Below are positions 32,406-44,791 of a stretch of DNA of 64,000 nucleotides, in pieces; position 1 is the stretch's first letter; each line of letters starts with the position of its first letter. The notes beneath the pieces are model-generated. The model ran no database searches. It was not told the origin of the DNA and saw nothing but the letters and a program-made list of their open reading frames with translations. A program made the position numbers and the translations under genes. The stretch comes from Variovorax sp. PBL-H6 (GTDB taxonomy: Bacteria > Pseudomonadota > Gammaproteobacteria > Burkholderiales > Burkholderiaceae_C), in the NCBI RefSeq assembly GCF_901827155.1, contig NZ_LR594659.1, forward strand, positions 4,650,001 through 4,714,000, read 5' to 3'.

Positions 32406-33242
32406 ATGAGCACCGAAAAAATCGTCCACGAAGAAAAGGCGCAGCTCGACTTCAGCGCCTCGATGAGCTACAGCGACTACCTGAGCCTCGACGCCATCCT
32501 CAACGCCCAGCACCCACGCTCGCCGGCGCACGACGAGATGCTTTTCATCGTGCAGCACCAGACCAGCGAACTTTGGATGAAGCTGATGCTGCACGAGCTG
32601 CGCGCCGCCATCGGCTGCGTCGCGCAGGACGAACTCGCCAGTGCCTTCAAGATGCTCGCGCGTGTCTCGCGCATCATGGAACAGCTGGTGCATGCCTGGG
32701 ATGTGCTGGCCACCATGACGCCGCCCGAGTACAGCGCGATGCGCCCCTATCTCGGCAGCTCCAGCGGCTTCCAGAGCTGGCAGTACCGGTGTGTCGAATT
32801 CGCGCTCGGCAACAAGAATGCCGCCATGCTCAAGCCTCACGAGCATCGGCCCGAGCTGCTGGCCGAGGTCGAAGCGGCCTGGCGCGCGCCCTCGCTCTAT
32901 GACGAGGCGCTGCGCCTGCTGGCGCGCCGCGGCTTCCCCGTCCCGGCCGACCATGTCGAGCGCGACTGGACCCGCCCGTACGAATCCAGCGATGGCGTGG
33001 AGCAGGTCTGGCTGAGCATCTACCGCGATCCGAAGCAGCACTGGGACCTCTACCAGCTGGGCGAGGAGTTGACCGACCTGGAAGACGCCTTCCGCCTCTG
33101 GCGCTTCCGCCACGTGACCACCGTCGAGCGCGTGATCGGCTTCAAGCGTGGCACCGGTGGCACGGGCGGCGTGAGCTATTTGCGCAAGATGCTCGACGTG
33201 GTGCTGTTTCCGGAGATCTGGAAGCTGCGCACGGATCTCTAG
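32406..33242 (+). CDS. kynA: Tryptophan 2,3-dioxygenase
   Basis: 278 residues, haem enzyme that opens the indole ring of tryptophan to N-formylkynurenine. The family core [39 protein letters not shown], the [20 protein letters not shown] segment with [19 protein letters not shown] near the C terminus are all intact. The last base pairs form a CTAG in which its TAG stop and the TAG stop of the opposing IclR gene overlap. Last gene of the kyn operon. Confidence 0.97.
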
Positions 33243-34102
33243 TTCCGGCTCGATCGGCCCGGCGGCACCGCTGGAAACTTCGCCGCTGTCAGCCGATTCT
33301 GGACGGCCTGCACGGCGGACTTCAGATCGCCGAGATGGCGCTTCACGATCTCCTGCTCGGTCGCGACTGCCGGCAGCCACGCGCAACTGATGCACCCGAC
33401 CACCACATCACCGAGCTGAATCGGCACCGAAATGGCGCCGAATCGCTCCGGCGAATCCAGGCTCGTCGGACTCGGGTCGCGCGATGCATAGCCCTGCGCC
33501 CGGTAGCGCGCGGGCCAGTCGGCGGCACCATGCGCCTTCAAGGCGGCACGGTCGACCTCGTAGGGCGAACGCGCCAGTCCGGCCAGCAGGCTGCGCCGTT
33601 CGGCTTCCGGGCAGAAGGCGAGATAGCAGCGCCCGAGTGAGGACAGCAGCAGCCGCGGGCGAAAGCCGAGCACACGGTAGTTGACGGCGAGTCCGTTGAT
33701 CGGCCGATGGGTGTCCAGGATCAGCATCGCCAGCCCATCCAGCACGGCGAGGTCGGTCGGCCAGGGGACCACCCGCTGCAACTGCTCCCGCGGCTGCGTC
33801 GCGAGCGCTGAAAGTCGAGTGCGCCATTCCACGGCCAATCCCGAGTCACCCGGGCTGGCCGCCGGCACATAGCGGTTCTCGATCTCGTTGCGCTCGATCC
33901 ACCCGGCCTCCTGCAACGTCCTCAGGATGCGCAGCAGCGTGGCCTTCGACAGCGAGGTCTGGCGGTGCAGGTCCGCCAACGTGGCGGCGGACGACTGCTG
34001 GATGGACCAGAACACATCGAGCCCGCGGCGCAGCGCGGTGATCGACTTCACGCCGGGCGCGGGCCCGGCGCTGCGGAAGCTGTCGCGGCGCGATTGGTTC
34101 AT
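33239..34102 (-). CDS. IclR-family transcriptional regulator
   Basis: 287 residues. The N-terminal winged helix-turn-helix is visible at about residues 20-85 ([33 protein letters not shown]), and the C-terminal GAF-like effector domain follows (LRP- and [16 protein letters not shown] segments, [15 protein letters not shown]). It is divergent from the Bug/TctC gene with a 98-nt shared region, the standard arrangement for an IclR regulator of a catabolic operon. The effector is unknown. Its stop codon overlaps that of kynA tail-to-tail. Confidence 0.92.
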
Positions 34103-34200: not shown

Positions 34201-35187
34201 ATGAAATCCCTTCGACGTCAGCTCACGCTCGGAGCCCTCGCGCTCGCCTGCGGCCTCGCCATCGCCCCTGCCACGGCGCAGACGACCTATCCCGCGAAGC
34301 CGATTTCCATCATCGTTTCCTATCCGCCCGGCAGCGACACCGACTCGATCGCGCGCATGCTCGCCGAGCGCTTGTCGCAGCGCCTGAATCAGCCGGTGAT
34401 CGTGGACAACAAACCGGGCGCGGGCGGCACGCTCGGCAACGCATTCGTCAGCCGCGCCGCGCACGACGGCTACACGCTGCTTTTCACGCCCAACCCGTTC
34501 ACCACCGCGCCGATGGTGCTGCGGCTGTCGCCCGCCGCCAGCTATGACGTGCTTCACGGCTTCGAGCCCATCATCCAGATCGCGACCCAGCCCCTCGTGC
34601 TGGTGGCTCATCCTGGCGTCGGCGCGAAGTCGGTGCCGGAGATGGTCGCACTGGCCCGCTCCGGCAAGACGCTCAGCTACGCCTCCCCGGGCGCCGGCTC
34701 GCCAATGCACATCGCGGGTGAGTGGCTCAACCGCACTGCCGGCGTGAAGATCACGCATGTGCCGTACCGTGGCGTCGCCCCGTCGGTCAACGACGTCGTT
34801 GCCGGCCATGTCGACACAGCCTGGGTGACGCTCGGCGTGGTGAGCCAGTACACCAGCCAGAACCGGCTCCTCCCCCTGGCCATCGGCGACGCCAGGCGCT
34901 CGCCGCTCGCGCCTCAGGTGCCCACGCTTTCCGAACTGGGCTACAAGGACGTCGTGGTCGGCGCCTGGAACGGGTTCTTCGCGCCCAAGGGCACGCCGAT
35001 CGAGGTCGTGCGCCTGCTCAACGTCCATCTCAACGAGATCATCAAGTCGCCCGAGGTGGTGAGCAAGCTGGCGACCTTCGGCGCTCAGCCGGTCGGCGGC
35101 GCACCCGAGGTGCTGGCGAAGACCAACGCAACCGAATACCAGGTGATGGGCAAGCTGATCAAGGAGTTGGCCATCACGGCCGACTGA
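34201..35187 (+). CDS. Bug/TctC-family tripartite tricarboxylate transporter substrate-binding protein
   Basis: 328 residues. A signal peptide is present (MKSLRRQLTLGALALACGLA, cleavage after ATAQ near residue 27). The mature protein has the Bug signature YPAKPISIIVSYPPGSDTD, RLNQPVIVDNKPGAGGTLG, FTPNPFT, the GAGSPMHIAGEW segment and HVPYRGVAPSVNDVVAG. Family members bind carboxylates or aromatic acids in the periplasm. The membrane partners TctA/TctB are not in the operon, as is usual for orphan Bug genes. First gene of the molybdoenzyme operon, with an AGGAGA ribosome binding site. The ligand is likely the operon's substrate or a relative (inference). Confidence 0.93.
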   Translation: MKSLRRQLTLGALALACGLAIAPATAQTTYPAKPISIIVSYPPGSDTDSIARMLAERLSQRLNQPVIVDNKPGAGGTLGNAFVSRAAHDGYTLLFTPNPFTTAPMVLRLSPAASYDVLHGFEPIIQIATQPLVLVAHPGVGAKSVPEMVALARSGKTLSYASPGAGSPMHIAGEWLNRTAGVKITHVPYRGVAPSVNDVVAGHVDTAWVTLGVVSQYTSQNRLLPLAIGDARRSPLAPQVPTLSELGYKDVVVGAWNGFFAPKGTPIEVVRLLNVHLNEIIKSPEVVSKLATFGAQPVGGAPEVLAKTNATEYQVMGKLIKELAITAD

Positions 35188-35199
35188 GGCGGGGCTCCC

Positions 35200-37494
35200 A
35201 TGAGTGCATCCACGCTGGGATTCTCGGTGCCCCAGGTCAATGCGCGCTCCAAGGTCACGGGGCGCGCCCTGTACGCCGGCGACATCCAGTTCCCCGGCAT
35301 GCTGCACGGCAAGGTGCTGCGCAGCCCCTATCCGCACGCCCGCATCGCGCACATCGATGTGACGCAGGCGCTTGCGCTGCCCGGCGTGAAGGCGGTCGTG
35401 ACGGGGGCCGACGGGCCGCCGGTGCCGTGGGGCGTCCACCACAAGGAACGGCTCACGCTGGCACGCGACGTGGTTCGCTTCGCCGGGGAGGAAGTGGCCG
35501 CCGTTGCCGCGACGAGCGAAGAGATCGCACGCGACGCGCTGGACCTGATCCGGGTCGAGTACGAAGAACTGCCAGCCCTCCTCACGCCCGACGAGGCGCT
35601 GGCTCCGCAGGCCACGCCGGTCCATCCCGGTCGCGCCGGCAACATCTCGCACGAGATCCGCTTCGAGCGCGGCGACGTCGATGCGGCCTTCACGCAAGCC
35701 CACCTGGTGCATGAAGCCACGTACACCACGCATGCGCAATACCCCGGCTATATGGAGCCGATGGCCTCCGTGGCGGCGGTCGATGCCGACGGCCGCCTGC
35801 AGGTGTGGACCTCGACCCAATCCGCGTTCCTGGTGCGCGCCCGCCTGGCCGCGGTGCTCGAGCTGCCGGTCTCTCGGGTGCGCGTCATCCAGGCGACCAC
35901 CGGCGGCGGCTTCGGTGGCAAGATCATCGAGGACGCCAACAGCCTGATCGCCGGACTGCTGGCGCTGCGCACCGGCAGGCCGGTACGGCTCGTCAACACC
36001 CGCCTGGAGGATTTCCTCGCCTGCGCGACCAGCGTGCCCGAAAGCATCACGCTCAGGCTCGGCATGGATCGCGCGGGCCGGATCGTCGCCAAGGACGTGC
36101 ACATCGTGGCCGACTGCGGCGCCTACAGCGGTCTGTCGGCGGAGGTCATGCATGTCAGCGCGATGCGCAGCGACAACATGCACCGCAACGGCAACGTGCG
36201 TTCGCACGCCACGCTGGTCTACACACACACGCCGCCGCACGGGGCCTTTCGGGGGTTCGGCGGCACGCAGATGCTGTTCGCACTGAACAGCCACATCGAC
36301 ACCATGGCCCGCAGGCTGGACCTCGATCCGCTGGAGGTCCATCGGCTCAATGCGATCGAGCGCGGCGAAACCTCGGTGCATGGCTGGAAGATCGGCAGCA
36401 CCGGCCTGACCGAGTGCCTCGCGCAATGCGCCGACGCGATCGGCTGGAGCGGCAGGCGCAGCCGCAACGATGCCATGCAGGGCGCGAAGCGGCGCGGGCT
36501 CGGCCTGGCCGCGGCCATGCATGTGAGCGGCAACAGGACCATCGGCGACTGGGACGGCTCCACCGTCATGCTGAAGATCGACGAGGACGGCCGTGTCGTC
36601 CTGCACAGCAGCGAGGCGGACATGGGCCAGGGGGCCATGACCATGCTGTCGCAGGTCGTGGCGCACGAGCTCGACATCCCGCTCGCGCATGTGCACGTCG
36701 CCCCGCCCGACACCGACAGCTCGCCCTGGTGCATCGGCTCGCTCGCCTCGCGCGTCACCATGGCGGCGGGCAATGCGGCCATCGTGGCGGCGCGCGCCGC
36801 GCGGGACAAGCTGCTCGAGCAAGCTGCCGCCATGCTGCAGGCACCCGTCGACGAGCTGCAATGCGCGGGGGGCACGGTGCATGTGCGCGCGATGCCGCAA
36901 CGCAGCCTCACGCTGGCCGAGCTGGCGCGCGCGCGCCTCTGGCGCCAGGGGGGCGAAGGCATTCAGGTCATCGGCACCTGGGATGCCAGGACCGAGATGT
37001 TCGACAAGAAGAGCCTCATGGGCAACATCGCGCCGGCCTACTCCTTCGCTGCGCAGGCGGTCGAGGTCGAAGTCGATATCGAGACGGGACAGGTCACCCT
37101 GGTCGACAGCTTCGTGTCCGACGACTGTGGAAGGGCCCTCAATCCGCAGGCGGTCCACGGGCAAAGCAACGGCGCTGCCGCGCAGGCGATCGGCTGGACG
37201 CTGTACGAGCGCCTGCAACTGGAGGACGGCCGCATCGCCAACGGCAACTTCGCCGACTACACCATGCCGACGCCGGACGCGCTGCCCATGCTGCGCAGCG
37301 GGATCGTGGAATCGAACGACCCCCATGGCCCCTACGGCGCCAAGGGGGCGAGCGAAACGGCGATCCTGCCCGGCCCCGCCGCGATCGCCAACGCCGTGTT
37401 CGATGCGGTGGGCGTTCGCATCACGGACCTGCCGATCACGCCCGAGAAGCTGCTGGCTGCGCTGCGCCGGCGAGAGGAGGCGCGCCATGCGTGA
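35200..37494 (+). CDS. Xanthine-dehydrogenase-family Mo hydroxylase, large (molybdopterin-binding) subunit
   Basis: 764 residues. Two domains: an aldehyde oxidase/xanthine dehydrogenase a/b hammerhead (residues ~10-125, with RSKVTGRALYAGDI and VRFAGEEVAAVAA) and the molybdopterin-binding domain. Cofactor motifs are GGGFGGK (~235-241), GAFRGFGGTQ (~348-357) and the catalytic Glu in GAKGASE (Glu719). Overall style resembles 4-hydroxybenzoyl-CoA reductase, nicotinate or related hydroxylases. The CO-dehydrogenase-specific Cys loop (AYxCSFR) is absent. Substrate unknown. It lies 12 nt after the binding-protein gene and overlaps the FAD subunit gene by 8 nt. Confidence 0.93.
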   Translation: MSASTLGFSVPQVNARSKVTGRALYAGDIQFPGMLHGKVLRSPYPHARIAHIDVTQALALPGVKAVVTGADGPPVPWGVHHKERLTLARDVVRFAGEEVAAVAATSEEIARDALDLIRVEYEELPALLTPDEALAPQATPVHPGRAGNISHEIRFERGDVDAAFTQAHLVHEATYTTHAQYPGYMEPMASVAAVDADGRLQVWTSTQSAFLVRARLAAVLELPVSRVRVIQATTGGGFGGKIIEDANSLIAGLLALRTGRPVRLVNTRLEDFLACATSVPESITLRLGMDRAGRIVAKDVHIVADCGAYSGLSAEVMHVSAMRSDNMHRNGNVRSHATLVYTHTPPHGAFRGFGGTQMLFALNSHIDTMARRLDLDPLEVHRLNAIERGETSVHGWKIGSTGLTECLAQCADAIGWSGRRSRNDAMQGAKRRGLGLAAAMHVSGNRTIGDWDGSTVMLKIDEDGRVVLHSSEADMGQGAMTMLSQVVAHELDIPLAHVHVAPPDTDSSPWCIGSLASRVTMAAGNAAIVAARAARDKLLEQAAAMLQAPVDELQCAGGTVHVRAMPQRSLTLAELARARLWRQGGEGIQVIGTWDARTEMFDKKSLMGNIAPAYSFAAQAVEVEVDIETGQVTLVDSFVSDDCGRALNPQAVHGQSNGAAAQAIGWTLYERLQLEDGRIANGNFADYTMPTPDALPMLRSGIVESNDPHGPYGAKGASETAILPGPAAIANAVFDAVGVRITDLPITPEKLLAALRRREEARHA

Positions 37495-38359
37495 GTTCGA
37501 GTTCCTGCAGCCGCGCACCGTGACCGAGGCGAGCCGCATGCTTGCCGACCTGGGCGACGAATGCAGGGTGATGGCCGGCGGCACCGCCTTGCTGTTGGCC
37601 ATGCGCCAGCGCATGGTGGCGCCGTCGCACGTGGTCTCGGCCATGCAGATCGAGGGGCTGCGCGCAATCTCCTTCGATGCGCGCCAAGGCTTGCGCATCG
37701 GCGCGCTGGTGAAGCATGCCGAGCTGGCACGCTCCGATGTCGTTCGGCGCCACTACCCCATGCTCGCGGCAATGGCCGCGCAGGTCGCCAATCCGCAGGT
37801 GCGCAACCAGGGCACGCTGGGCGGCAACCTCTGCTATGCCGACCCCGCCACCGATCCGCCCGGCTGCCTGATGGCGCACGGCGCGCAGCTGGTGCTGGGC
37901 AGCGCGCGCGGCGAACGCGTGCTCTCGATCGAGGAATTCCTGGTGGACTACTACGTGACCGCTCTCGAGCCCGACGAGCTGCTGGTGGAGATCCGCGTCC
38001 CGGCGCCGCCATCCGGCGCCGAGGGCCGCTACACGCGCTTCCTGCGCACGGCCGCGGAGCACCGGCCGCTCGCCAGCGTCTCCCTGATGGCGCGGAAGGA
38101 GGGCATGCTGTGCCGCGAGGCGAGGCTGGTCGTGGGCGCATCCGTGGCCATTCCGGGCCGCGTCAACCGCGCAGAGGAATTCCTGCGCGGCAGGACCATC
38201 ACGCAGGCCACGGCAGCAGAGGCCGCCGACATCGTCGCAGCGGACATCGAGCCCATCTCGGACACGCGCGGCACCGCCACTTTCCGACGCGACATGGTGA
38301 GGGTCGCCTGCCGCCGGACCATCGCGGGCCTGTTCGGCCTGCAAGGAGAGAACCCATGA
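37487..38359 (+). CDS. Xanthine-dehydrogenase-family Mo hydroxylase, FAD-binding (medium) subunit
   Basis: 290 residues. The FAD-binding PCMH-type fold is identified by AGGTALLLAMRQRM at residues 30-43 and the NPQVRNQGTLGGNLCYADP segment (~102-120). A CO-dehydrogenase-flavoprotein C-terminal domain follows. It passes electrons from the iron-sulfur subunit to the acceptor. It starts within the 3' end of the large-subunit gene and its stop overlaps the start of the iron-sulfur gene (ATGA). The A/B/C subunit order (L-M-S) is one of the standard permutations. Confidence 0.93.
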   Translation: MREFEFLQPRTVTEASRMLADLGDECRVMAGGTALLLAMRQRMVAPSHVVSAMQIEGLRAISFDARQGLRIGALVKHAELARSDVVRRHYPMLAAMAAQVANPQVRNQGTLGGNLCYADPATDPPGCLMAHGAQLVLGSARGERVLSIEEFLVDYYVTALEPDELLVEIRVPAPPSGAEGRYTRFLRTAAEHRPLASVSLMARKEGMLCREARLVVGASVAIPGRVNRAEEFLRGRTITQATAAEAADIVAADIEPISDTRGTATFRRDMVRVACRRTIAGLFGLQGENP

Positions 38360-38832
38360 GCCAACACGCCATTGCCCTGGTCGTCAACGGAGAACGGCAG
38401 GAGGCGGACGTCCCCGCGCGCAGGCTGCTGTCCGACTTCCTGCGGGACGACCTGCACCTGACGGGCACCAAGCGGGGCTGCGAGACCGGCGTCTGCGGCG
38501 CCTGCTCGGTGCTGATCGACGGCGAGGTCGTGAAGTCCTGCCTCTCGCTGGCAGTGCATGCCGACGGCTGTTCCGTCACCACGGTCGAAGGGCTGGCGCA
38601 GGACGACCGGCTGCACCCTCTGCAGGAAGCGTTCATGCGCTGCGGTGGGCTCCAGTGCGGCTACTGCACGCCGGGGTTCCTGATCGCCTCGTGCGCGCTG
38701 CTGGCGAAGAACCCGGCGCCTTCGGAGCACGAGGTGCGCCACGGCCTCGACGGCAACCTGTGCCGCTGCACCGGCTACAGCCAGATCGTTGAGTCGGTGC
38801 TGGACGCCGCGGAGAAGATTCATGGAAATTGA
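38356..38832 (+). CDS. Xanthine-dehydrogenase-family Mo hydroxylase, [2Fe-2S] (small) subunit
   Basis: 158 residues. Plant-type ferredoxin cluster ligands are Cys42, Cys47, Cys50 and Cys62 (CETGVCGACSVLIDG...SC). The second, molybdenum-proximal cluster uses Cys101, Cys104, Cys136 and Cys138 (CGYCTPGF and LDGNLCRCTGY). All eight Cys are present. The family consensus length of ~160 is met. Coupled on both sides by overlaps: ATGA with the FAD subunit and 11 nt with the CoxG-like gene. Confidence 0.95.
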   Translation: MSQHAIALVVNGERQEADVPARRLLSDFLRDDLHLTGTKRGCETGVCGACSVLIDGEVVKSCLSLAVHADGCSVTTVEGLAQDDRLHPLQEAFMRCGGLQCGYCTPGFLIASCALLAKNPAPSEHEVRHGLDGNLCRCTGYSQIVESVLDAAEKIHGN

Positions 38833-39607
38833 GAAGACCCTGGCCTTTGCCGCCCCGCCCACACGGATCTGGGCGCTGCTGCTGGACCCCGAGGTGATGG
38901 GCGGTTGCGTTCCTGGCATGCAGTCGATCGAGGTGGTGAGTCCCACCGAATACAAGGCGCTGATGGCGGTGAAGATCGCCTTCGTGAGCGCGAAGTTCAG
39001 GCTGAGGACGACCATCCTCGAGCAACGCGCGCCTTGCTACCTGCGCTGCGAAGGCACCGGCGAGGATGCCTCGGTGGCCAGTTCGCTCAAGCAGCAGAGC
39101 GAGATGTTCCTGACCGAACAGGCGGACGGCGGCACTCAGCTGCGCGTGAAGGTGCGGGTCGACGTGCTGGGGCGACTCGGCAGCTTCGGGCTGAGCATCA
39201 TGAAGACCAAGGCGGACCGCATGTGGGACGAGTTCGGGCAGAAGCTGGCAGATCGCATCGAGTCGCAGCAGGCAACACCGGTCGAGCCCGTTGCGCCCGA
39301 AACCGCGCCGACTCCGCCCGCCCTGCCCCTTGCCGAGCCGGGCGCGGTGCAGCCGGGACTGCCCGAACGCCCCTCAAGTGCCATCGGGGCTGAAGCCGCC
39401 CCGCTCCGGTCGGAGAAGATCGGCTGGGGGCCACGCCTGCTCCGCGCGCTCGCGAAGCACGGCGCCCCGATAGGCGAGCGCCACATCCGCATCGAGCTGG
39501 TGCGCAACGGCGCGACGGTCACCGTCCATTTGCCGATGGAAGCGGCCGGCGAATGCGCCGCGCTCCTGCGCGACTGCCTGCGGGCGACAACGAAGGAGTC
39601 AGCATGA
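38822..39607 (+). CDS. CoxG-like SRPBCC protein with extra C-terminal segment
   Basis: 261 residues. Residues 1-150 match the CoxG/SRPBCC fold seen beside many molybdenum hydroxylases (MEIEKTLAFAAPPTRIWALL, DPEVMGGCVPGMQSIE, an FRLRTTIL strand and LGRLGSFGLSIMKTKADRMW). CoxG-type proteins are thought to help membrane attachment or maturation of the enzyme. Residues ~155-195 are a Pro/Ala-rich linker. Residues ~196-261 form a separate segment (GWGPRLLRALAKHGAPIGER, then RIELVRNGATVTVHLP) that I do not recognise. Stop overlaps the BisC-like gene (ATGA). Confidence 0.85.
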   Translation: MEIEKTLAFAAPPTRIWALLLDPEVMGGCVPGMQSIEVVSPTEYKALMAVKIAFVSAKFRLRTTILEQRAPCYLRCEGTGEDASVASSLKQQSEMFLTEQADGGTQLRVKVRVDVLGRLGSFGLSIMKTKADRMWDEFGQKLADRIESQQATPVEPVAPETAPTPPALPLAEPGAVQPGLPERPSSAIGAEAAPLRSEKIGWGPRLLRALAKHGAPIGERHIRIELVRNGATVTVHLPMEAAGECAALLRDCLRATTKESA

Positions 39608-41925
39608 ACATGCCACGCGGCCATCGCACGATCCAGACGGCGTCCCATTGGGGCGTCTACAACGTTGAAGTCGACCCACGCGGCCAGATCGTTCGGACCA
39701 CGCCATTCAGGTACGACCCCCATCCGCCGAGCTACATGGCGAGCCTGCCGGAGACGGTTCGCAGTCCGCTGCGCATCGACCAGCCGCATGTCCGCGCCGG
39801 CTACCTGCAGCGCGAGAAGACGCGCAAACGCGGCGGCGAGCCATTCATCCCGATCGGCTGGGACGAGGCGCTGGACCTGGTCGCCGGCGAGTTGGCGCGC
39901 GTCAAATCCGAGTTCGGCAACGAGGCCATCTACGGCGGCTCCTACGGCTGGGCAAGCGCCGGACGGCTCCATCATTCCCCCAGCGTCCTCAAGCGCTTCC
40001 TCGGCCTGCATGGGGGCTACGTCGACAAGCGTGGCAACCACAGCTTCGGGGCGGCCTTGCAGATCGCACCCTACATCCTCGGCCGCTCGGACATCACGGA
40101 AATGGTGGTGCCCTGGCCCGACCTGGTGGCGTGCGCCGAGCTGGTGGTGATGTTCGGCGGCGCGTCGCTGAAGAATACCCAGATCGATGCCGGCGGCGCC
40201 GTGGCGCACGAGAACCCGGACTGGTTCCGGCGCGCGGCCGCGGCAGGCATCCGCTTCGTCAACATCAGCCCATCGCGCCAGGACCTGCCAGCGGAGGTGA
40301 AGGCGGAGTGGATTCCGCTGCGGCCGAACACCGACGTCGCGTTGATGCTGGGCATCGCGCACACCTTGGAGAAGGAAGGCCTGTGCGACCGGGCCTTTCT
40401 GGCGACGTACAGCGAAGGCTACGAGCGCTTCGAGGCCTACCTCATGGGGCGTGAGGATGGCCAACCCAAGGATGCGCGCTGGGCAAGCCGCATCACCGAG
40501 GTGCCCGCAGAGGTGATCGAAGGTCTGGCGAGAACAATGGCCCGGTCGCGCACCCTCGTCACGACGAGCTGGTCGATTCAGCGCGCCGACCACGGCGAGC
40601 AGCCGGTCTGGATGACGATCACGCTGGCGGCCATGCTGGGCCAGATCGGGCTCCCCGGACGCGGCTTCAGCCTGGGCTTCGGCGCGGTCAACGGCACGAC
40701 GAGGTCGCACCACGAGGGCATTCCGCGGCCGACTCTGCCGCTCGGATCCAATCCCGTGAAGACCTATGTGCCGGTCGGACGCGTCGGCGACATGCTGCTG
40801 CGCCCCGGCGCGACGATCGAATACGACGGCAAGACCATCACCTATCCGGAGACGAGACTGCTGTACTCGATCGGAGGCAACCCTTTCCACCACAACGGCA
40901 ACCTCAACCGGTTCCTCGAGGCCTGGCAGCGACTCGACACCGTGATCGTCCATGAGCCCTGGTGGAACCCGGCCGCCAAGCACGCGGACATCGTGCTTCC
41001 GGCGACCACCACGATGGAGCGCAACGACATCCTCGCGCAGGAGTACACGCCCTTCTGGATCGCGATGAAGCAGGTGATCGAGCCCGTGGGCCAGGCACGC
41101 AACGACTTCGACATCATGGCGAGCCTGGCGACCCGCCTGGGATTCGGTCACGCCTACACGGAGGGGCGCGACGAGCTCGGATGGCTGAAGCACATGTACG
41201 AAGGCGCCCGCACACAGGCGCGGGCCCTCGGCTTCGAACCGCCGGAGTTCCAGGCCTTCTGGGATGCAGGGGTGTTCGAGTTTCCGCCGCCACCAGACGC
41301 CAAGGTCCTGCTCGAGGACTTCCGGCGCGATCCTGCCGGGCACCGGCTGTCCACGCCGTCTGGGCGGATCGAGATCTTCTCGAGCACCATCGCCGGCTAC
41401 CGCTATGCGGACTGCCCGCCGCATCCGACATGGCTGGAGCCCGCGGAGTGGCTGGGGTCGCGAACGGCGTCGCGTTTTCCACTGCATCTTCTGTCGAATC
41501 AACCGGCAGCGCGACTGCACAGCCAACACGACCACGCTCCCGCGAGCCGCCGCAGGAAGGTTGCTGGGCGAGAGGCGCTGGCCATGCATCCCGTTGACGC
41601 GACAACCCGCGGACTCGCGCAGGGAGACATCGTGCGGGTCTTCAATGACCGTGGCGCGTTCCTCGGTGGATTGGTCGTCGCGGACGATCTTCGTCCCGGG
41701 GTCGTCCAGATCTCGACTGGTGCCTGGTACGACCCTGCCGAAGGCGGCGAGCCCGGCACCCTCGAGAAGCACGGCAATCCGAATGTCGTCACCCTGGATG
41801 GCGGCACGTCGCAGCTGGCGCAATCGACCGTCGTCCAGACAGCCCTGGTGCAGGTCGAAAAATGCGGATCGCCACCGCCGGTGACCGCGTTCGAGCCGCC
41901 GCAGTTCGCTGCGCGCTCCTTCTGA
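39604..41925 (+). CDS. Molybdopterin-dependent oxidoreductase, BisC/TorA (DMSO reductase) type
   Basis: 773 residues. It lacks a twin-arginine signal and the N-terminal [4Fe-4S] Cys motif, so it is probably cytoplasmic like biotin sulfoxide reductase. The Mo-ligand region reads GGSYGWASAGRLHHSPS, with Ser118 in the position of the DMSO-reductase serine ligand. Other family features: WDEALDLVAGEL, IQRADHGEQPVWM, GNPFHHNGNLNRF, HEPWWNPAAKHADIVLPATT and the C-terminal LHSQHDHAPASRRRK with HPVDATTRGLAQGDIV. Related enzymes reduce S-oxides or N-oxides. Last gene of the operon, coupled to the CoxG-like gene. Both its substrate and its electron donor are unknown. Confidence 0.92.
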   Translation: MNMPRGHRTIQTASHWGVYNVEVDPRGQIVRTTPFRYDPHPPSYMASLPETVRSPLRIDQPHVRAGYLQREKTRKRGGEPFIPIGWDEALDLVAGELARVKSEFGNEAIYGGSYGWASAGRLHHSPSVLKRFLGLHGGYVDKRGNHSFGAALQIAPYILGRSDITEMVVPWPDLVACAELVVMFGGASLKNTQIDAGGAVAHENPDWFRRAAAAGIRFVNISPSRQDLPAEVKAEWIPLRPNTDVALMLGIAHTLEKEGLCDRAFLATYSEGYERFEAYLMGREDGQPKDARWASRITEVPAEVIEGLARTMARSRTLVTTSWSIQRADHGEQPVWMTITLAAMLGQIGLPGRGFSLGFGAVNGTTRSHHEGIPRPTLPLGSNPVKTYVPVGRVGDMLLRPGATIEYDGKTITYPETRLLYSIGGNPFHHNGNLNRFLEAWQRLDTVIVHEPWWNPAAKHADIVLPATTTMERNDILAQEYTPFWIAMKQVIEPVGQARNDFDIMASLATRLGFGHAYTEGRDELGWLKHMYEGARTQARALGFEPPEFQAFWDAGVFEFPPPPDAKVLLEDFRRDPAGHRLSTPSGRIEIFSSTIAGYRYADCPPHPTWLEPAEWLGSRTASRFPLHLLSNQPAARLHSQHDHAPASRRRKVAGREALAMHPVDATTRGLAQGDIVRVFNDRGAFLGGLVVADDLRPGVVQISTGAWYDPAEGGEPGTLEKHGNPNVVTLDGGTSQLAQSTVVQTALVQVEKCGSPPPVTAFEPPQFAARSF

Positions 41926-43334: not shown

Positions 43335-44516
43335 TCACGCCCCGTAGAGCCAGGGCACGTCGAGCAAGCGCGGGCCCAGCAGCCGCAGCGCTGCGTCACG
43401 GCCCACGCGCACCAGGCCGGTCGCATGGAAGATCTCGCCGTTGCGCCGCGCCCGCGCCTGCACCTGCGCATTGCGTTCCCAGCGCCCTTGCGCGTAGTGC
43501 GCGAGACGCTGCGGCACCTCCTCGGCGCCGCAGCCGTCCAGCGCCTCGGCCAGCGCCACGCCGTCCTCGATCGCCATGCCGGCGCCTTGCGCGAGGTAAG
43601 GCAGCATCGGGTGCGCGGCATCGCCGACCAGCGCCACGCGCTCGCCGGCCATCTGCTCGGGACCGCTGAGCGGCGGGCGGTCGCACAGCGTCCAGGCCCG
43701 CCATGACGGCATTGCCTCCAGCAGCCGCTGCAGGCCGGTGTGCATGTGGCCGGTCGCGGCCTGCAGGGTGGCCAGGCTGCTGGCCTGGTCCCAGTCGCGT
43801 GCATCCCCGGTCGGCGCGGCCTCGGCCAACACCACGACGTTGAGCGCCTCGCCACGCCGAACCGGGTAGGCCACCGCATGGAGGCGTGGGCCGAGCCAGA
43901 CGCTGATCTGCGTGCTGCGCAACGCGGCTGGCAATGCGGACTGCGCGATCAGCGCGCGCCACGCCGTATGGCCGGTCGCGCGCGGTGGCGATGCGTCCTC
44001 CACCAGGCGCGCGCGCACCGTGCTCCAAAGGCCGTCGGCGCCGACCAGCGCATCGCCTTCCCAAGCCCTGGTCGCGGTGCTCGCGACGCAGACCGCGCCC
44101 GCACGCGCCACGGCATCGGTGATGCGCGCGGCGGTGTTGAGGGTGACGGCGCCGGTGCCACGCACCGCTGCGAGCAGCACCGCATGCAGGTCGGCGCGAT
44201 GGGCGCAGAGGTAGGGCGCACCATAGCTGCGCAACATCGCGTTGCCGAGCGGCAGGCGCGCGATTTCATCGCCGCGCACCGCGCTGCGCACGACCAGCGC
44301 CTCGGGCTTGGCGGCAATGCGCATCAGCGGCTCCCATACTTCCAGCATCTGGAGCCGGCGCGCGACGTTGGGCCCGAGCTGGATGCCCGCGCCGACCTCC
44401 GCGAAGGCCACGGCTTGTTCGAACAAGTCGATGCGATGGCGGCGTCGGGCCAACGCGAGGGCGCTGGCAAGGCCCGCAATGCCGCCGCCCGCGACCAGGA
44501 TATGAGCGGCAGCCAT
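43335..44516 (-). CDS. FAD-dependent aromatic monooxygenase (salicylate hydroxylase-like)
   Basis: 393 residues. Class A flavoprotein monooxygenase: the dinucleotide-binding VAGGGIAGLASALALARR near residue 6, the VGADGLWSTVRARL loop and the GDAAHPMLPYLAQGAGMAIEDG ribityl-binding motif. Closest in style to 3-hydroxybenzoate 6-hydroxylase/salicylate hydroxylase. No aromatic-degradation genes adjoin, so the substrate is unknown. The start is ATG 44516 (MAAAHILVAGGG); a longer frame upstream overlaps nothing family-like. Convergent with the SUKH-ankyrin gene, 4 nt apart. Confidence 0.85.
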   Translation of the reverse strand: MAAAHILVAGGGIAGLASALALARRRHRIDLFEQAVAFAEVGAGIQLGPNVARRLQMLEVWEPLMRIAAKPEALVVRSAVRGDEIARLPLGNAMLRSYGAPYLCAHRADLHAVLLAAVRGTGAVTLNTAARITDAVARAGAVCVASTATRAWEGDALVGADGLWSTVRARLVEDASPPRATGHTAWRALIAQSALPAALRSTQISVWLGPRLHAVAYPVRRGEALNVVVLAEAAPTGDARDWDQASSLATLQAATGHMHTGLQRLLEAMPSWRAWTLCDRPPLSGPEQMAGERVALVGDAAHPMLPYLAQGAGMAIEDGVALAEALDGCGAEEVPQRLAHYAQGRWERNAQVQARARRNGEIFHATGLVRVGRDAALRLLGPRLLDVPWLYGA

Positions 44517-44521
44517 CCCGC

Positions 44522-44791
44522 TCAGCGCGCGGTGCTGCTGCGCCTTGCTTGCGCCGAGGAGCCGGCCGGGGTGCCACAGCTGCCGCAGCTGTCGCACGAG
44601 CCGCATCCCGAAGTCCTGGAAAGCGAATCCGCGAGCCGGCGTGCGCGCTGCGCATCGACCAGGCCGGCGCGCTGCGAGCCCGAAGCGAGCCGAGCCGCCG
44701 CGGCGCGGCGCCAGCCGGCGGGCATCCAGCGCCAGAGGGCGTAGATCGCAGCCAGCGCGACGATCAGTCCGACGATGATGGGTTGCGTCAT
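44522..44791 (-). CDS. Small Cys-rich single-pass membrane protein of the feo operon (DUF6587-like)
   Basis: 89 residues. A membrane helix at residues ~5-22 is followed by a basic WRRAAAARL stretch and a C-terminal cluster of four Cys at 63, 66, 69 and 72 (C-x2-C-x2-C-x2-C). It lies 1 nt after feoB in the same direction and has a GGAGGATGAG ribosome binding site. The position corresponds to that of FeoC in enterobacteria, but the sequence is unrelated. A metal- or cluster-binding role in ferrous iron uptake is an inference. Confidence 0.75.
   Translation of the reverse strand: MTQPIIVGLIVALAAIYALWRWMPAGWRRAAAARLASGSQRAGLVDAQRARRLADSLSRTSGCGSCDSCGSCGTPAGSSAQARRSSTAR

What the first reader, a model, noticed from the sequence alone, without database searches (positions are those of the whole stretch)
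34201..41925. Six-gene operon combining two unrelated classes of molybdenum enzyme
A Bug/TctC binding protein, a three-subunit xanthine-dehydrogenase-type hydroxylase, a CoxG-like protein and a BisC/DMSO-reductase-type enzyme follow each other with gaps of 0-12 nt. Every junction after the large-subunit gene overlaps (8 nt, ATGA, 11 nt, ATGA). An IclR regulator is divergent. Mo hydroxylases insert oxygen from water, while BisC-type enzymes remove oxygen from S-oxides or N-oxides. Coupled expression suggests a pathway that uses both chemistries on one imported acid or heterocycle, for example reduction of an N- or S-oxide before or after ring hydroxylation. I know of no described pathway with this gene set.
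Basis: partly seen in the sequence, partly recalled or inferred. Interest (0 to 1): 0.8.

Follow-up and report, generated by a model that had tools for sequence, protein, structure and literature searches.

The report
Two molybdenum enzymes in one operon
A soil bacterium keeps two unrelated molybdenum enzymes, one that adds oxygen to a molecule and one that takes oxygen away, in a single gene block; relatives suggest that the oxygen-removing enzyme is an optional extra step for breaking down an as yet unknown imported compound.

Summary
In detail: six co-directional genes (TctC, L, M, S, CoxG-like G, BisC-like B) with overlaps of 8, 4, 11 and 4 nt behind a divergent IclR gene. L-M-S-G, mostly with TctC just upstream, is the conserved core; B is an accessory. 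Of 101 Variovorax genomes 26 carry L and 11 carry B; all 11 are among the 26, with B directly 3' of G. All 26 also carry a Rieske oxygenase gene (63 of 101 overall) that elsewhere adjoins LMSG in a ring-cleavage-type cluster. Operon-linked B proteins are not one clade (AU p 9e-6), so B probably joined this junction more than once; the L tree leaves this open (p 0.06). Four Pigmentiphaga-type genomes carry B at one locus and TctC-LMSG at another. B keeps the Mo-ligand serine and the Tyr/Trp pair of S-/N-oxide reductases, lacks a leader, and has its own active-site signature. Best reading: B deoxygenates an N-oxide, N-hydroxy or S-oxide form of the imported compound, LMSG hydroxylates it, the Rieske cluster finishes it. 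The link is well supported; substrate and order are inferred. B is dispensable: missing in one close relative, broken in two.

The parts
33239..34102 (-). IclR-family regulator, divergent from the operon
   Evidence: PF09339 37.1 bits (cut-off 22); IclR_C 23.3 bits, just under its cut-off of 24. Beside the operon in 7 of the 8 group-A loci including this window (not in G503); in group B and most B-less operons a gene of one cluster (c5) stands there instead; its one tested member is MarR-like.
34201..35187 (+). TctC/Bug periplasmic binding protein; signal-like N-terminus (read by eye)
   Evidence: PF03401 212.3 bits; related TctC genes precede L, or B in Pigmentiphaga-type loci.
35200..37494 (+). 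L: large Mo-binding subunit of a xanthine-dehydrogenase-family hydroxylase
   Evidence: PF01315, PF02738, PF20256. Best solved relative 4-hydroxybenzoyl-CoA reductase alpha, 452.9 bits; catalytic-Glu region GAKGASE aligned; CODH VAYxCSFR motif absent (motif meanings recalled).
37487..38359 (+). M: FAD subunit
   Evidence: PF00941, PF03450; overlaps L by 8 nt.
38356..38832 (+). S: subunit with two [2Fe-2S] motifs (CxxxxCxxC..C and CxxC..CxC, read from the sequence)
   Evidence: PF00111, PF01799; ATGA overlap with M.
38822..39607 (+). G: CoxG-like protein, N-terminal CoxG domain plus a C-terminal extension
   Evidence: PF06240 61.4 bits (cut-off 22.2) over residues 10-146 of 261.
39604..41925 (+). 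B: BisC/DMSO-reductase-like molybdoenzyme of a distinct subfamily, predicted cytoplasmic
   Evidence: PF00384, PF01568, PF18364; 676 bits to DMSO reductase 1e60, alignment starts at chain residue 48 vs query residue 8, so no leader. Tyr114, Trp116, Ser147 kept; subfamily signature.

Best explanation
An imported acid or heterocycle is bound by TctC. LMSG, a Mo hydroxylase, inserts an oxygen from water and passes its electrons through FAD to quinone with CoxG-like G as go-between. The product enters a separate catabolic cluster (Rieske oxygenase, FAD monooxygenase, VOC-type dioxygenase, aldehyde dehydrogenase). B is an optional front-end step: it reduces an N-oxide, N-hydroxy or S-oxide form of the compound, or of a close analogue, so that it can enter at LMSG. 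Shown by comparison: the conserved core, the nesting of gene sets, the repeated association of B, purifying selection on intact B, kept catalytic residues. Inferred: the reactions, their order, electron transfer by G, and the substrate class.
For: Nested gene content in 101 Variovorax genomes: Rieske gene 63; L 26 (26 of 26 inside the 63; Fisher p 6e-7); B 11 (11 of 11 inside the 26; p 5e-8); genomes are not independent, and only the Rieske gene of that cluster was counted. B directly 3' of G in all 11 (window itself). Two operon-linked B groups, one clade rejected, p-AU 9e-6. Four Pigmentiphaga-type genomes with B at one locus and TctC-LMSG at another; the TctC before B there groups with operon TctCs, 100/98 (3 of 4 loci tested; the tree warns of long branches elsewhere). 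B dN/dS 0.09-0.13 in 6 pairs, L 0.09-0.16. The Rieske gene is directly upstream of L in L186, L188, L189 and a few genes away in L130, L162, L163; in this genome its cluster lies unlinked at C1:2956648-2967337. Tyr+Trp mark reductases that take both S- and N-oxides (PMC5122715, passages). CoxG of CO dehydrogenase is described as quinone-binding (PMC13240472, passages).
Against: B is absent from 15 of 26 Variovorax L genomes, one of them (G003) inside group A by its L, and is split by frame changes in G014 and G503. Seven of the 12 non-Variovorax rows of the B subfamily come from genomes or records without a close L (best match 30-39%), so B has uses without LMSG. The L tree does not reject one clade for the B-bearing operons at 0.05 (p-AU 0.06), so a single capture followed by replacement or export of B remains possible. 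No substrate, activity or transcript data; no promoter-like match in the region, where shuffles give 0.5, so uninformative.
Confidence: 0.5

Rival explanations
1. B is a general cytoplasmic repair enzyme for biotin or methionine sulfoxide that happens to ride in the operon.
For: Nearest named family is BisC; the related MtsZ (TorZ) of Haemophilus, a periplasmic enzyme, reduces biotin sulfoxide and methionine sulfoxide (PMC5122715, passages); B is the only match at E<=1e-50 in this genome.
Against: A housekeeping gene should not be confined to L genomes: 0 of 75 Variovorax genomes without L carry this B at E<=1e-260. The subfamily differs from 59 other BisC-like proteins at 27 positions at the thresholds used, some next to the Mo-ligand serine.
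Confidence: 0.15
2. B acts later in the pathway, on an N-hydroxy, N-oxide or sulfoxide intermediate made by the Rieske or FAD monooxygenase.
For: In Burkholderia L029/L131 B is the last gene of a run with two LigB proteins, aldehyde dehydrogenase, two FAA hydrolases, RidA, acetaldehyde dehydrogenase and aldolase, which looks like a 2-aminophenol meta pathway (pathway name recalled).
Against: In Variovorax B is tied to LMSG and not to the Rieske gene as such: 37 genomes have the Rieske gene without L, and none of these has B.
Confidence: 0.15
3. B is an electron sink for the hydroxylase: electrons from LMSG go to an N- or S-oxide through B when oxygen is short.
For: G is a CoxG-like protein that could hand electrons on; B is beside G.
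Against: No electron-transfer subunit or membrane anchor is encoded with B in the operon; 15 of 26 Variovorax LMSG operons do without B.
Confidence: 0.08
4. B is a passenger with no role in the pathway.
For: Missing or broken in 3 of the 8 group-A genomes (G003, G014, G503).
Against: Probable repeated recruitment at the same junction, co-occurrence at separate loci in four Pigmentiphaga-type genomes, dN/dS as low as that of L in intact copies.
Confidence: 0.08

Closest known systems
Xanthine-dehydrogenase-family Mo hydroxylases of (hetero)aromatic catabolism (quinoline 2-oxidoreductase, nicotinate dehydrogenase, 4-hydroxybenzoyl-CoA reductase)
   Same: L/M/S make-up and domains.
   Different: No curated equivalog cut-off is reached (4-HBCR alpha 635.6 of 994.55; XdhA 523.3 of 780). 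Gene order L-M-S plus G, with TctC upstream.
Aerobic CO dehydrogenase cox operons
   Same: CoxL/M/S-like subunits and a CoxG-like protein.
   Different: L lacks the VAYxCSFR motif in the alignment with a CODH; no coxDEF genes in the operon.
BisC / MtsZ / DMSO reductase
   Same: Domain family, Ser147, Tyr114 and Trp116.
   Different: No leader, no electron-transfer partner gene in the operon, below the bisC_fam cut-off; own residues next to the Mo ligand: H146 in 22 of 23, Y in 56 of 59 others.
Fusarium FDB1/FDB2 benzoxazolinone clusters (metallo-beta-lactamase MBL1, N-malonyltransferase NAT1)
   Same: The Burkholderia locus L131 with a B relative holds a metallo-beta-lactamase-fold protein and an arylamine N-acetyltransferase-family protein near a 2-aminophenol-type pathway (PMC4726666, passages).
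   Different: An analogy of gene families only; the operon in this window holds no such gene.

Membership tests
Xanthine-dehydrogenase-family Mo hydroxylase (LMS) | Mo, FAD and 2x[2Fe-2S] domains in separate subunits | tested here: met
   Pfam domains above cut-off in L, M and S.
Xanthine-dehydrogenase-family Mo hydroxylase (LMS) | Active-site Glu near the C terminus of L | tested here: met
   GAKGASE aligned with GAKEASE of 4-HBCR; role of the Glu recalled.
Form I CO dehydrogenase | VAYxCSFR motif with Cu-binding Cys | tested here: not met
   L reads HGAFRGFGG where the CODH chain reads VAYACSFR; motif meaning recalled.
4-hydroxybenzoyl-CoA reductase | Curated equivalog score | tested here: not met
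   635.6 of 994.55 bits.
BisC family (TIGR00509) | Curated subfamily score | tested here: not met
   933.5 of 1017.55 bits.
S-/N-oxide reductase of the DMSO reductase superfamily | Ser Mo ligand with active-site Tyr and Trp | tested here: met
   Ser147, Tyr114, Trp116; Tyr/Trp rule from PMC5122715, passages.
S-/N-oxide reductase of the DMSO reductase superfamily | Catalytic reduction of an S- or N-oxide | not testable with these tools
   Needs enzyme assay.
CoxG | COXG domain | tested here: met
   PF06240 61.4 bits, residues 10-146 of 261.
CoxG | Quinone binding and membrane link | not testable with these tools
   Reported for CODH CoxG (PMC13240472, passages); not tested for G.
TctC/Bug binding protein | TctC domain | tested here: met
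   PF03401 212.3 bits.

The most novel reading that the evidence does not exclude
B and LMSG together carry out an oxygen transposition: B removes oxygen from a ring N-oxide or cyclic N-hydroxy compound, and LMSG puts an oxygen from water on the neighbouring carbon. The two half-reactions take up and release two electrons each, so an N-oxide becomes a C-hydroxy isomer with no net redox cost and no O2. B would then be the first named member of a distinct N-O-reducing subfamily of the DMSO reductase superfamily, recruited repeatedly into catabolic pathways (hydroxamates of the benzoxazinoid type, or heteroaromatic acid N-oxides, are candidates).
Probability: 0.12. Interest if true: 0.85.

Novelty: new variant of a known kind. 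Interest (0 to 1): 0.58.

Why it matters
If true, it names a catabolic role for a branch of the DMSO reductase superfamily that is neither respiration nor sulfoxide repair, gives a marker around the Mo ligand (GNHSFGAA, with single changes in L030 and L031) to find it, and gives nested sets of natural strains with and without the step, so that substrate and role can be found by comparing growth of sequenced Variovorax strains.

Tried and rejected
CO dehydrogenase was rejected: motif absent. Kynurenine link: genes that look like a kynurenine operon (names recalled from the sequence, no family search run) lie just upstream here, in G005 and in G014, and some genes away in G486, but their cluster is not in the stretches read from G478, G003, G489 or G503, so I treat it as a shared insertion site. 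Auxin (iad) pathway: considered after a paper listing; the Rieske protein here has a vanillate-demethylase-type C-terminal domain; the iad papers were not read, so this is set aside rather than refuted. Fusaric acid: one B relative is in a fusaric-acid-degrading Burkholderia (PMC10293998, outline and abstract), but no fusaric acid gene was tied to B. Benzoxazinoids: only analogy in Burkholderia L131; one maize-bacteria paper searched for six terms has no mention of Variovorax in its main text (PMC11297187, passages). Is the gene set in print? Of ten paper searches, three were aimed at the gene set (listings only) and showed no paper that describes it by title or abstract start; the others were on parts or candidate substrates. 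Subscription journals are mostly not held, so this does not show that it is undescribed. Structure prediction was not run: I judged that pocket coordinates would not have been at hand.

Limits of counts: at most two first-look candidates per genome were scored, and at most ten, so presence counts are lower bounds. One search kept 80 of 424 candidate loci, one search listed 120 of 1283 proteins. The trees dropped five loci (L021, L022, L023, L027, L034), judged to be the same genomes as L162, L164, L126, L165 and L166 from equal contig lengths. The TctC tree left out the short TctC next to B in L028 (182 aa). Of the B. cenocepacia genome behind L131 and of Caballeronia NK8 only the one replicon record was seen. 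The cluster labels come from my own ORF caller (codon log-odds trained on the seven genes), and each cluster was named from one or a few members.
Full report
What is there. TctC 34201-35187, L 35200-37494, M 37487-38359, S 38356-38832, G 38822-39607 and B 39604-41925 run in one direction; IclR 33239-34102 is divergent. L/M overlap by 8 nt, M/S by 4, S/G by 11, G/B by 4. The window lies in G000 C1:4650001-4714000. Pfam and NCBIfam agree on the classes. L is an unnamed branch of the xanthine dehydrogenase family: no curated equivalog cut-off is reached, and it lacks the CO dehydrogenase motif. A protein search found 1283 relatives of L at E<=1e-150, of which 120 were listed; named ones include Variovorax, Ramlibacter and Hydrogenophaga proteins under generic names. 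B is closest to DMSO reductase among solved structures and to bisC_fam, but below the curated cut-off of the latter.

The core and the accessory. Among 101 genomes of the genus, 26 carry L at E<=1e-200 (72-100% identity) and 11 carry B at E<=1e-260. All 11 are among the 26, and in the fetched stretches B lies directly 3' of G in all of them (the window itself). The other 15 have TctC-LMSG without B. Outside the genus, L at about 60-76% was found in six further genomes of the 399-genome family draw, four more of the 399-genome order draw, a Caballeronia plasmid, four Pigmentiphaga-type genomes (two named Pigmentiphaga, one Alcaligenaceae bacterium, one Burkholderiales MAG) and one Burkholderiaceae MAG. 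Of the eleven draw and plasmid loci, eight can be read beyond G and have no B there; in G264, G545 and G628 the contig ends before. For the ten draw genomes a whole-genome search at E<=1e-100 found only BisC-like matches of 46-51% or none. TctC is just upstream of L in the Variovorax, six of the ten draw and the Pigmentiphaga-type operons; in the f3 family loci and in Caballeronia a Rieske gene, or TPP and VOC genes, stand there instead. Thus LMSG, mostly with TctC, is the conserved unit and B a variable addition.

Two groups of operon-linked B. The B subfamily around the window protein is a set of 23 rows (100/100) from Pseudomonadota, Chloroflexota and Actinomycetota. Within it the operon-linked copies fall in two places. 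Group A (window, G005, G014, G478, G489, G486, G503) is nearest to the Pigmentiphaga-type and Burkholderia IMCC1007 copies (fork support 88/89). Group B (G274, G463, G515, G029) is sister to the Burkholderia BCC0506 and CMCC and the Pseudomonas poae copies (100/99). Holding all eleven in one clade is rejected, p-AU 9e-6; with the MAG copy L030 added, 3e-8. In the L tree groups A and B are not sisters, but one clade (with L163) is not rejected at 0.05, p-AU 0.06. Separate captures are the simplest reading; a single capture followed by replacement of B, or its export to other genera, is not excluded. In G003, whose L is 90% identical and lies inside group A, B is missing. In G014 and G503 B is split by frame changes. 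Intact copies are under purifying selection like L (dN/dS 0.09-0.13 against 0.09-0.16 in six pairs).

Association at separate loci. Twelve genomes or records that carry the B subfamily outside Variovorax were searched for L. Five have a close L (68-74%): the four Pigmentiphaga-type genomes and the MAG, in which B lies about 5 kb past G behind an ABC transporter. The other seven (IMCC1007, BCC0506, the B. cenocepacia replicon, P. poae, Ktedonosporobacter, Actinomycetospora, Roseiarcaceae) have only distant ones (best 30-39%). For comparison, close L genes were found in 8 of 399 and 6 of 399 genomes of the family and order draws (two candidates scored per genome). In the four Pigmentiphaga-type genomes B stands behind a TctC (short in L028) and TctC-LMSG lies elsewhere; a MarR-like gene precedes it in three, and the fourth stretch begins at a contig end. 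The TctC before B groups with the operon TctCs (100/98; three of the four tested). This suggests related ligands.

The wider pathway. Recurring neighbours of LMSG are a vanillate-demethylase-type Rieske oxygenase, a reductase with Fer2 and NAD-binding domains, an FAD monooxygenase, a VOC-type dioxygenase-like protein, an aldehyde dehydrogenase, an aspartate-dehydrogenase-like protein, a TPP enzyme, a small HTH protein, RidA, porin and MFS proteins. The Rieske gene lies directly upstream of L in L186, L188 and L189, and a few genes away in L130, L162 and L163. In this genome the cluster is at C1:2956648-2967337, about 1.7 Mb from the operon. The Rieske gene is in 63 of 101 Variovorax genomes and in 26 of the 26 L genomes; the rest of the cluster was not counted. 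The sets are nested: Rieske gene, then LMSG, then B. Fisher p values (6e-7, 5e-8) ignore shared ancestry and are descriptive. Such nesting is what peripheral steps added in front of a common pathway would give.

What B probably does. Tyr114, Trp116 and Ser147 are kept (two of the 23 rows, L033 and L059, read GGCYGW for GGSYGW, with Tyr and Trp kept). Enzymes with the Tyr/Trp pair reduce both S- and N-oxides; those without the Tyr reduce N-oxides only (PMC5122715, passages). B begins where the mature DMSO reductase begins, so it should stay in the cytoplasm. The subfamily differs from 59 other BisC-like proteins at 27 positions at the thresholds used; H146 and F148 flank the Mo-ligand Ser147, and S422 and N431 lie beside a GGNP motif shared with DMSO reductase. 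Other contexts are mixed. In three of the four Pigmentiphaga-type loci genes with FAD-oxidase and Fe-S domains, glycolate-oxidase-like, follow B; in L024 a Rieske gene does. In Burkholderia BCC0506 and the CMCC replicon B ends a run that looks like a 2-aminophenol meta pathway, and in the CMCC replicon a metallo-beta-lactamase-fold protein and an N-acetyltransferase-family protein were seen nearby. The pairing recalls the MBL1/NAT1 genes for benzoxazolinone in Fusarium (PMC4726666, passages). Benzoxazinoids include cyclic hydroxamic acids, so an N-O bond would be at hand, but this is analogy.

Verdict. The operon is real and the two enzymes are probably functionally linked, with B optional. 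I put about 0.8 on the link as such and 0.5 on B acting in front of LMSG. The substrate is unknown. CoxG-type electron transfer to quinone is taken from CODH work (PMC13240472, passages, citing Kropp 2025, which was not held) and is untested here.

Noticed in passing
L041, L044, L045, L051, L055 (L049 shows M only): In Candidatus Binatota and related MAGs a more distant BisC-like gene stands divergent to an XDH-type M, S and L set (L 33-35% identical) that starts 0.4-2.7 kb away: a second, separate neighbourhood of the two enzyme classes.
   Followed up: partly
L063 and L067: Two Rhodospirillales MAGs have an M-S-L set on the same strand beginning about 1.3 kb downstream of a BisC-like gene.
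   Followed up: no
L035, L060, L070: Two BisC-like genes, or parts of them, lie in tandem.
   Followed up: no
L126 (G014) and L166 (G503): B is split by a frame change in two Variovorax genomes, at different places, while tblastn matches cover TctC, L, M, S and G in both.
   Followed up: partly
L209 (G000 C1:2956648-2967337): TPP enzyme, AspDH-like, AldDH, VOC, TctC, FAD monooxygenase, HTH, Rieske, reductase and porin genes in a row; substrate unknown; the Rieske gene is present in 63 of 101 Variovorax genomes.
   Followed up: partly
window 43335-44606: FAD monooxygenase near the operon, closest to 3-hydroxybenzoate 6-monooxygenase but below its cut-off; a relative (38%) is part of the Rieske cluster.
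   Followed up: partly
window 38822-39607: G has the highest dN/dS of the six genes in five of six pairs (up to 0.43), and residues after 146 have no Pfam match.
   Followed up: no
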